Positions 26,958 through 29,312 of a stretch of 64,000 nt of DNA are shown here, piece after piece. This DNA comes from Croceivirga sp. Lineage in GTDB: Bacteria; Bacteroidota; Bacteroidia; Flavobacteriales; Flavobacteriaceae. The position numbers were made by a program, and so were the translations under genes. The stretch's first letter is position 1, and each line of letters begins with the position of its first letter. The stretch spans positions 1 through 64,000 of the forward strand of contig JANQKR010000003.1 of assembly GCA_028281025.1 (NCBI GenBank), given 5' to 3'. The notes beneath the pieces are model-generated. The model had not been told where the DNA came from, did not search any database, and was given only the letters and a program-made list of their open reading frames with translations.

Positions 26958-29312
26958 ATGAGTGAAGCCATGAGTACCACAGCAAAAGTGCCCTTTGGGC
27001 AAAAAGTAGCTTTTGGAGTTGGAATGTTTGCCAACCAAATGTTCCCTGCCATTCTTGGAATTTTTATGGTGGTCCTTGTACAATCATTTGGATTTAATGG
27101 GTGGTTGTGGTCCTTGGTTTATTTTTTCCCTAGGATTTTTGATTCCATAACCGATCCCATTATGGGGTTCATCTCGGACAATACGAAATCCAAATGGGGC
27201 AGACGAAAGCAGTATGTGCTAATTGGTGGACTTCTAATGGGGATAGCGTTTACCTTGATGTGGCAATTGTATTCGGACAATACCTTGCAATATAATTTTT
27301 GGTATTTCTTTTTATGGTCCATTGTATTTTATCTGGGGCTCACTTTTTTCAGTGTACCCTATGTGGCCATGGGTTATGAAATGAGCGATGATTTTCATGA
27401 ACGGACCAACATTATGGCCGTGGCCCAATGGATTGGCCAATGGGCTTGGGTCATTGCCCCCTGGTTTTGGGTGATTATGGATGACCCGGATTGGTTTCCA
27501 AACCAAGAAATAGCTGTCCGTGAATTGGCCGTTTGGGTGGCCATCCCCTGTGCAATTGCAGCGATGGTACCAGCTATATTCATTAAAAGTAAATCGACCC
27601 TTGATGAAGATTATGAACCGTTGAACGTATCCAATATTGGAGGTAGCCTTAAGAAAATTATAGGGAGTTTCAAAGATGCCTTTAAACTGGCCGAATTTAG
27701 AAGGATATGTGGCGCCACGTTTTTGATTTTCAATGCCTTTAACACCGTGGCCGCCCTAACTTATTTTGTCATTGTTTATAGGTTATTCAATGGCGATGCC
27801 GTTGCTACTGGTATTTGGGTTGCCCTGTTCGGCTGTATAGGAGCGTTGGGTACAACGTTTATTGTGATTCCTTTGGTGACCTGGATGTCAAAAATAATGG
27901 GTAAAAAGAAGGCGTTCATGTGGGCCCAGGCTATTTCGATTGTTGGTTATGTCATGATGTATTTCCTCTTTATACCTGGAAAACCATGGTTGTACATCAT
28001 TGCACTGCCCTTTTTCTCTTTTGGGATAGGGAGTTTGTTTACCATTATGATGTCCATGACAGCGGATGTTATCGATATAGATGAACTTAATTCGGGCAAA
28101 CGCAGGGAAGGTATCTTTGGCGCCATCTACTGGTGGATGGTCAAGGTGGGTTTTGCCATAGCAGGAGCGCTTAGCGGGGTAATTATTGGTATTGTTGGTT
28201 TTAACCCCGATTTAGTTACCACCGAACAACAAGGGGCAGTAGACGGGCTTCATGCATTTTTCTGCTTCTTCCCTATGGTAGGAACCCTATTTGCCATGTT
28301 GATCATGAAGAATTACGATGTTTCCGAAGAGCGCGCAAATGAAATACGTGCGAAATTGGAAAAGCGTAAGAACAAGCCAGCCGAAAAACTGACTTCGTAC
28401 TACCAAACGGACAAACTACGTTCGCTCGCTACCATGGACTTAAATGTCCAATCAAAGACGGATATCGACTTCCTGGGAAAAACGGATGCCGAAATCAAAA
28501 GGCTATTTTCAAAATCGTTGAGCACCGGACTTCATGGGCTGTGCTTTAGTCCATATTTGGAAGGTCAGGATATTGGTGATTCCCTGTCGGAAGCACAGAT
28601 ACGGCAACGGATGGAGGTCATTGCCCCCTATACCAAATGGGTCCGCTCTTTTTCCTGTACGGAAGGAAATGAGTTTATTCCGCACCTAGCCCATGAAAAA
28701 GGCTTAAAAACAATGGTAGGTGCTTGGATCGGAAGTGATAAAAAAGAAAATGAAAAGGAAATCAAGGCCCTTATTGACCTTGCCAGAAAGGGACAGGTAG
28801 ATATCGCCGTGGTTGGCAATGAAGCCTTAATGCGGAATGAAGTCACAAAGCAGGAGATTCTGGATTATATCAGCGATGTCAAAAAGGCGCTACCGAACAT
28901 TCCGGTTGGTTATGTGGATGCTTATTATCAATTTCTTGAAAACCCTGAATTGATAGATGCCTGTGATGTGGTTTTGGCCAATTGTTATCCGTTCTGGGAA
29001 GGATGCGATATTCAGTATGCAGCGACCTATTTAAAACAGATGTACGCGGTCACTAAAAATGCGGCAGCAGGAAAACCTGTGATCATTACGGAAACGGGCT
29101 GGCCCGATCAGGGCACAAATACGGGGACAGCGGAACCTTCATCCACAAATGCGATGAAATACTTCATTAACAGCACCAATTGGGCCACTCAAGAGGGAAT
29201 CCCCATGTTTTATTTCTCATCCTTTGATGAGTCCTGGAAAGTGCACCATGAAGGGGACGTTGGGGAACGTTGGGGAATTTGGAATAAAAATGAACAACTA
29301 AAATATCAATAG
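26958..29312 (+). CDS. MFS/GPH-type sugar transporter fused to C-terminal cytosolic GH17 domain
   Basis: Residues ~1-460 polytopic GPH-like (RIFDSITDPIMGFISDNTKSKWGRRKQYVLIGG). From ATG 28434 (residue 493) a full GH17 domain with VVGNEALMRNE and IITETGWP. Uninterrupted frame. Confidence 0.92.
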   Translation: MSEAMSTTAKVPFGQKVAFGVGMFANQMFPAILGIFMVVLVQSFGFNGWLWSLVYFFPRIFDSITDPIMGFISDNTKSKWGRRKQYVLIGGLLMGIAFTLMWQLYSDNTLQYNFWYFFLWSIVFYLGLTFFSVPYVAMGYEMSDDFHERTNIMAVAQWIGQWAWVIAPWFWVIMDDPDWFPNQEIAVRELAVWVAIPCAIAAMVPAIFIKSKSTLDEDYEPLNVSNIGGSLKKIIGSFKDAFKLAEFRRICGATFLIFNAFNTVAALTYFVIVYRLFNGDAVATGIWVALFGCIGALGTTFIVIPLVTWMSKIMGKKKAFMWAQAISIVGYVMMYFLFIPGKPWLYIIALPFFSFGIGSLFTIMMSMTADVIDIDELNSGKRREGIFGAIYWWMVKVGFAIAGALSGVIIGIVGFNPDLVTTEQQGAVDGLHAFFCFFPMVGTLFAMLIMKNYDVSEERANEIRAKLEKRKNKPAEKLTSYYQTDKLRSLATMDLNVQSKTDIDFLGKTDAEIKRLFSKSLSTGLHGLCFSPYLEGQDIGDSLSEAQIRQRMEVIAPYTKWVRSFSCTEGNEFIPHLAHEKGLKTMVGAWIGSDKKENEKEIKALIDLARKGQVDIAVVGNEALMRNEVTKQEILDYISDVKKALPNIPVGYVDAYYQFLENPELIDACDVVLANCYPFWEGCDIQYAATYLKQMYAVTKNAAAGKPVIITETGWPDQGTNTGTAEPSSTNAMKYFINSTNWATQEGIPMFYFSSFDESWKVHHEGDVGERWGIWNKNEQLKYQ

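What the first reader, a model, noticed from the sequence alone, without database searches (positions are those of the whole stretch)
26958..29312. MFS (GPH-type) transporter covalently fused to a cytosolic GH17 domain
Seen: one uninterrupted 784-codon frame. After the last TM (LFAMLIMKNYDVSEERANEIRAKLEKRKNK), a basic linker leads to a complete GH17 domain with both catalytic motifs. The positive linker fits a cytosolic C-terminus. Inference: imported oligoglucan is hydrolysed or transglycosylated as it leaves the transporter, which could keep transport inward and favour long substrates.
Basis: partly seen in the sequence, partly recalled or inferred. Interest (0 to 1): 0.85.

Follow-up and report, generated by a model that had tools for sequence, protein, structure and literature searches.

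The report
Known laminarin transporter–GH17 enzyme fusion
This marine bacterium makes one protein in which a sugar importer carries a sugar-cutting enzyme on its inner, cytoplasmic end, a design already described in 2018 in another seaweed-sugar-eating bacterium and common in its relatives, so the gene is real but not new.

Summary
Observation confirmed. 26958-29312 is one intact 784-codon frame: a 12-helix MFS_2 (MelB-like) transporter, its conserved basic C-terminal helix, a ~35-residue linker and a complete GH17 barrel with both catalytic glutamates (E622, E712). It is not a frame error: 67 other single-ORF fusions were found in related loci. C-in topology is strongly supported (30 versus 2 K+R on the two sides).

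It is not new. It has the architecture of FbGH17B (FORMB_24740, Formosa Hel1_33_131; Unfried 2018), with the same gene order (GH17A-GH30-MFS-GH17B). The fusion is reported as common in marine Flavobacteriia and also in gammaproteobacterial MAGs (PMC10108472).

Most likely role: a cation-coupled importer of laminari-oligosaccharides with a tethered cytosolic beta-1,3-glucan hydrolase, working with the cytosolic GH149 phosphorylase and the standalone GH17B next door. The fused domain has Met where transglycosylases have Tyr, so hydrolysis is likelier than transglycosylation; the neighbour keeps Tyr. Direct hand-over of substrate is untested.

Added here, not found in the papers read: fused GH17 modules form one lineage, but their transporters do not (AU p about 1e-72). 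The module has repeatedly come and gone on one transporter backbone; a 94%-identical relative lacks it. Fusion is therefore advantageous at most, not required for transport.

The parts
26958..29312 (+). MFS_2 transporter - GH17 fusion protein, 784 aa
   Evidence: Single ORF; Pfam PF13347 + PF00332; 67 homologous single-ORF fusions
26994..28307 (+). Transporter domain: 12 predicted TM helices, residues 13-450; MelB-like cation-site Asp62/Asp66 and Lys396 conserved
   Evidence: AlphaFold2 model helices; alignment to MelB D55/D59/K377; invariant in 39 fused homologues
28326..28370 (+). Basic amphipathic C-terminal helix of the transporter, residues 457-471, present also in unfused relatives
   Evidence: H457-471; unfused MFS end right after it
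28371..28484 (+). Variable linker, residues 472-509 (pLDDT below 50 at 474-477)
   Evidence: linker alignment
28485..29309 (+). GH17 (beta/alpha)8 domain, residues 510-784; acid/base E622, nucleophile E712, M625 at the transglycosylase Tyr position, W680 and E681 kept
   Evidence: Foldseek to RmBgt17A 4wtr TMt 0.86
29315..30223 (+). Standalone GH17B, 302 aa, no signal peptide, keeps Tyr at the transglycosylase position; about 53% identical to the fused domain
25446..26942 (+). GH30 lipoprotein, counterpart of FbGH30 beta-1,6-glucosidase
   Evidence: Pfam; N-terminal lipobox-like GMLGC
24093..25421 (+). GH17A endo-laminarinase lipoprotein, counterpart of FbGH17A (6fcg, 665 bits)
20648..24109 (+). 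GH149 beta-1,3-oligoglucan phosphorylase (6hq6, 1585 bits), no signal peptide, cytosolic
16846..17712 (+). GH16 lipoprotein
   Evidence: Pfam; N-terminus
17696..20551 (+). PKD-domain lipoprotein of the laminarin locus
   Evidence: Pfam; N-terminus

Best explanation
It is a member of the known FbGH17B-type MFS-GH17 fusion of laminarin utilisation loci. Shown: one protein with a MelB-like 12-helix transporter whose C-terminus is predicted on the cytosolic side and carries an intact GH17 domain, in a locus with lipoprotein GH17A and GH30 and a GH149 phosphorylase without signal peptide. Inferred: GH30 and GH17A debranch and cut laminarin outside the inner membrane; the transporter imports the short beta-1,3-oligoglucans with a cation; the tethered GH17 hydrolyses them on the cytosolic side. 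The standalone GH17B (likely glucanosyltransglycosylase) and GH149 process the rest. The tether mainly secures equal numbers and closeness of the two activities; direct substrate channelling is possible but not required.
For: Intact ORF and domains. Same order as FORMB_24720/24730/24740, that is GH17A-GH30-MFS-GH17B. FbGH17B turns oligosaccharides into glucose in vitro (PMC6246565). Met at the Tyr136/Tyr102 position as in FbGH17B; fused domains there L33/M22/Y5/H2/F1, standalone Y146/L8. C-in topology: 30 versus 2 K+R, mean 28.5 versus 2.9 in 39 homologues. None of 162 standalone GH17B homologues has a hydrophobic N-terminus like a signal peptide, so the family looks cytosolic. MelB cation-site Asp and Lys aligned and invariant. 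GH149 phosphorylase in the same run of genes, no signal peptide.
Against: No transport or enzyme assay of this protein. pTM 0.60 gives no defined docking of the GH17 on the transporter exit. Close relatives do without the fused domain. Some standalone GH17B also lack the Tyr (8 of 154) and 5 of 63 fused domains keep it, so the split of activities is not absolute. MlGH17B acts poorly below DP5 (PMC13188888), while MelB-like carriers usually move short sugars (general knowledge).
Confidence: 0.78

Rival explanations
1. The fused GH17 transglycosylates incoming oligosaccharides into longer branched glucans, trapping them as a cytosolic store, as proposed for the standalone MlGH17B.
For: About 53% identity to a family whose characterised member MlGH17B is a beta-1,3-glucanosyltransglycosylase; Trp and Glu of the acceptor site are kept.
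Against: Tyr at the +1/+2 platform is Met; Tyr102Ala abolished transglycosylation in RmBgt17A, and FbGH17B with Met was reported as a glucose-releasing hydrolase.
Confidence: 0.15
2. The fusion is a passive gene join: two neighbouring genes of one pathway were fused, with no functional coupling, and it is close to neutral.
For: The fused module is repeatedly present or absent on near-identical transporters (20 changes on the MFS tree, AU p about 1e-72 against one clade); unfused loci have a separate GH17B right after the transporter.
Against: The fused GH17 is its own old lineage with an invariant active site, never found unfused in this sample, and 66 of 68 fusions keep a second, standalone GH17B as well.
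Confidence: 0.25
3. The GH17 lies in the periplasm and feeds the transporter from outside; Unfried et al. discuss periplasmic enzymes next to this transporter.
For: The other GH17 (GH17A) of the locus is a lipoprotein outside the cytosol.
Against: 30 versus 2 positive charges, 12 helices with N and C on one side, MelB fold, and relatives without signal peptides.
Confidence: 0.03
4. Frame error or chimeric assembly joining two genes.
For: None found.
Against: 67 other single-ORF fusions in related loci from many genomes; published cloned case.
Confidence: 0.01

Closest known systems
FbGH17B / FORMB_24740 (AOR29491.1), Formosa sp. Hel1_33_131 (Unfried et al. 2018, PMC6246565)
   Same: N-terminal MFS with 12 predicted TM helices plus C-terminal GH17 in one protein; same locus order GH17A-GH30-MFS-GH17B; Met in place of the transglycosylase Tyr
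   Different: AOR29491.1 itself was not at hand. L081 (single contig of 2.735 Mb, Met, same order) is probably this protein, an inference: MFS 69% and GH17 72% identical to the window
GH17-MFS fusions in North Sea bloom MAGs (PMC10108472)
   Same: Same fusion in variant 1 laminarin loci
   Different: Such loci reported also in gammaproteobacterial MAGs (SAR92, Luminiphilus, SAR86); not compared here by sequence
MlGH17B and separate MFS transporter of Muricauda lutaonensis (PMC11005184, PMC13188888)
   Same: Same locus slot and homologous GH17; no signal peptide
   Different: Two separate genes; transglycosylase with Tyr136. The window's own standalone GH17B (29315-30223) is the better counterpart
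MelB, melibiose permease of the GPH family (4m64, 7l16)
   Same: Fold and cation-site Asp and Lys
   Different: About 18% identity; the galactoside-binding Asp19 and Asp124 of MelB align with Gln27 and Ser132
RmBgt17A beta-1,3-glucanosyltransferase (4wtp, 4wtr)
   Same: GH17 fold (TMt 0.86), catalytic Glu pair, Trp and Glu of the acceptor site
   Different: Tyr102 replaced by Met625

Membership tests
FbGH17B-type MFS-GH17 fusion | One ORF with N-terminal MFS and C-terminal GH17 | tested here: met
FbGH17B-type MFS-GH17 fusion | 12 TM helices with GH17 after the last one | tested here: met
FbGH17B-type MFS-GH17 fusion | Laminarin locus with GH17A and GH30 directly upstream | tested here: met
FbGH17B-type MFS-GH17 fusion | Met at MlGH17B Tyr136, with Trp191 and Glu192 kept | tested here: met
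   M625, W680, E681
FbGH17B-type MFS-GH17 fusion | Glucose release from debranched laminari-oligosaccharides | not testable with these tools
   Needs an enzyme assay
Glycoside hydrolase family 17 | Pfam PF00332 above gathering score | tested here: met
   47.1 versus 28.2 bits
Glycoside hydrolase family 17 | Acid/base Glu after beta-4 and nucleophile Glu after beta-7 | tested here: met
   E622 and E712, invariant in 63 fused and 154 standalone sequences; strands
GPH symporters (TIGR00792) | NCBIfam TIGR00792 score above cut-off | tested here: not met
   174.6 versus 231.35 bits
MFS_2 (PF13347), MelB-like transporters | Pfam PF13347 above gathering score | tested here: met
   208.6 versus 27 bits
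MFS_2 (PF13347), MelB-like transporters | Cation-site Asp pair in helix 2 and Lys in helix 11 | tested here: met
   D62, D66, K396 aligned to MelB D55, D59, K377
MFS_2 (PF13347), MelB-like transporters | Cation-coupled oligosaccharide uptake | not testable with these tools
   Needs a transport assay

The most novel reading that the evidence does not exclude
The fused GH17 is a distinct, old enzyme lineage that has switched from transglycosylase to hydrolase and behaves as an exchangeable C-terminal cassette: it has been gained and lost many times at one fixed joint on the same transporter backbone, and also sits on a second transporter clade, while a standalone transglycosylase-like copy is kept beside it.
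Probability: 0.5. Interest if true: 0.5.

Novelty: new member of a known kind. Interest (0 to 1): 0.3.

Why it matters
Laminarin is a major carbon flow in the ocean. A transporter with a tethered hydrolase invites the question whether joining uptake to cleavage gives an advantage. Near-identical transporters with and without the enzyme exist in nature, and this makes the question directly testable. The design itself is already published.

Tried and rejected
Frame error: rejected (67 other intact fusions). Triple fusions suggested by long 'open frames' of 1025-1142 aa: rejected, the real ORFs are separate genes. Fusion arising independently on each transporter: not supported by the GH17 tree, where fused and standalone domains part at one branch. 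Simple vertical descent of the whole fusion: not supported; fused transporters do not form a clade, and the sister transporters L094/L150 carry GH17s that refuse to be sisters (p 0.0001), while L085/L092 was borderline (p 0.05). A test of the Tyr-keeping fused clade on the MFS tree did not finish. Literature searches for other transporter-CAZyme fusions found nothing relevant. All trees were 'quick' searches, and the loci sampled were those most like the window.

Full report
WHAT IS THERE. The frame 26958-29312 on the + strand is a single uninterrupted ORF of 784 codons, starting with ATG and ending with TAG. Residues 19-456 match MFS_2 (PF13347, 208.6 bits) and the C-terminal part matches GH17 (PF00332, 47.1 bits), both above the curated cut-offs. 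An AlphaFold2 model built on 56 sequences (mean pLDDT 88.5, pTM 0.60) shows twelve transmembrane helices between residues 13 and 450, a further helix at 457-471, a loose linker (pLDDT below 50 at 474-477) and a GH17 (beta/alpha)8 barrel from about 510. The model matches solved MelB and MFSD2A structures in the first part and the Rhizomucor beta-1,3-glucanosyltransferase RmBgt17A in the second (TMt 0.86). The catalytic residues are E622 (in NEAL, after strand 4) and E712 (in ETGWP, after strand 7).

NOT AN ARTEFACT. The same one-frame fusion was found in 67 other loci from related genomes, 68 with the window (a few loci from the two collections are the same genome), among them a nearly identical copy in Flavobacteriaceae bacterium GF1 (MFS 98.7%, GH17 94.7%). 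The large protein database returned many more full-length relatives with both Pfam domains. In the window's family, 18 of the 80 fetched regions, drawn from the matches in a sample of 301 genomes, carry it.

TOPOLOGY. The side of the membrane that bears the N- and C-termini has 30 Lys+Arg and the other side 2; over 39 fused relatives the means are 28.5 and 2.9. The GH17 is therefore predicted to be cytosolic. This agrees with the lack of any signal-peptide-like N-terminus in all 162 standalone homologues tested, while GH17A and GH30 of the same locus begin with lipoprotein-type signals. By alignment, the MelB cation-site residues D55, D59 and K377 correspond to D62, D66 and K396, invariant among the fused relatives, but MelB's galactoside-binding Asp19 and Asp124 are not kept (the roles of the MelB residues are from general knowledge). 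So a cation-coupled carrier of a different sugar is expected. The protein stays below the cut-off of the NCBIfam GPH model, so 'MelB-like, MFS_2' is the safer name.

SURROUNDINGS. Upstream in the same direction lie a GH16 lipoprotein, a PKD-domain lipoprotein, a GH149 beta-1,3-oligoglucan phosphorylase without signal peptide (1585 bits to 6hq6), the GH17A endo-laminarinase (665 bits to FbGH17A 6fcg) and a GH30. Directly downstream is a second, standalone GH17B of 302 aa. This is a laminarin utilisation locus.

ALREADY DESCRIBED. Unfried et al. 2018 (PMC6246565) cloned FbGH17A, FbGH30 and FbGH17B (FORMB_24720, 24730, 24740), the last being an MFS transporter with C-terminal GH17. They suggested coupling of hydrolysis and uptake, called the fusion common among marine Flavobacteriia, and saw glucose as product. 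A 2023 bloom study (PMC10108472) found GH17-MFS fusions in most expressed variant 1 laminarin loci, with gammaproteobacterial MAGs among those carrying such loci. The MlGH17B papers (PMC11005184, PMC13188888) describe the unfused arrangement in Muricauda, show MlGH17B to be a transglycosylase, and note that FbGH17B has Met instead of Tyr136, a residue whose Ala mutant in RmBgt17A lost transglycosylation.

WHAT THIS ANALYSIS ADDS. (1) At the Tyr136 position the window's fused domain has Met and its standalone neighbour has Tyr. Over the sample, fused domains have L33, M22, Y5, H2, F1 and standalone ones Y146, L8; the catalytic Glu pair and the Trp-Glu of the acceptor site never vary. On the tree most of this is an old difference between two lineages (13 changes of the residue in all), not dozens of independent events. 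(2) In the GH17 tree the fused domains part from the standalone ones at one branch (SH-aLRT 95). In the MFS tree fused and unfused transporters are mixed, with 20 changes and at least 11 forced by well-supported branches. A tree with all fused transporters of this backbone together is rejected (AU p about 1e-72). (3) Two Croceivirga MAGs (L121, L173) have transporters 94% identical to the window's that end right after the basic helix, followed 48-49 bases later by a standalone GH17B only about 60% identical to the window's standalone copy. This looks like replacement of everything behind the transporter, not decay of the domain. (4) L040 carries a fused-type GH17 on a different transporter clade. 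(5) 66 of 68 fusions are followed by a standalone GH17B. Together: one origin of the fused enzyme lineage and repeated loss or exchange of the module. Gains and losses cannot be told apart yet. I did not find these points in the papers read, but could not search subscription literature.

MECHANISM. Shown: composition, topology by sequence rules, intact active site, locus. Inferred: GH30 and GH17A produce debranched oligosaccharides outside the inner membrane; the carrier imports them; the tethered GH17 hydrolyses them in the cytosol; GH149 and the standalone GH17B take the rest. The repeated absence of the module shows that transport does not need it, and the model gives no fixed docking, so the tether most likely ensures proximity and equal dosage. 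A real hand-over of substrate, preference for long chains or help in keeping transport inward remain conjecture.

VERDICT. Interest is low to moderate; the part worth following is the natural experiment of near-identical transporters with and without the enzyme.

Noticed in passing
window 172-8760 (- strand): A molybdenum-cofactor cluster (MoeA, ThiF/MoeB-like, MoaA) next to a molybdopterin-binding oxidoreductase large subunit and a 2Fe-2S subunit.
   Followed up: no
window 9145-11937: Regulator with Y_Y_Y and propeller repeats and a LuxR-type DNA-binding end, just upstream of the laminarin locus and in the same direction; probably its regulator (inference).
   Followed up: no
window 12208-15408 and 15421-16824: A GH2-like TIM-barrel protein and a 467-aa predicted lipoprotein without Pfam match head the locus. 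No SusC/SusD pair was recognised among the ORFs scanned in the window.
   Followed up: partly
L181 (MAG labelled Rhodobacteraceae AC_MB41_1): Carries a flavobacterial-type locus with a fusion 73% identical to the window's; probably a misbinned contig.
   Followed up: no
L040 (G178) and L047 (G070): MFS-GH17 fusions of 855 and 815 aa on the other, about 40%-identical MFS clade; in L040 the GH17 nests among the main fused lineage, which suggests transplantation of the module. Genome G645 of the same genus as G178 has a similar match.
   Followed up: partly
L036, L048-L050, L082, L142, L146, L188, L193-L195: Loci with two different MFS transporters and two standalone GH17B genes in alternation (MFS46-GH17B-MFS-GH17B), possibly serving different oligosaccharide sizes.
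   Followed up: no
window 47871-49967: DUF4140/DUF4139 protein with an inserted CarboxypepD_reg-like and TonB plug domain, an unusual domain mix.
   Followed up: no
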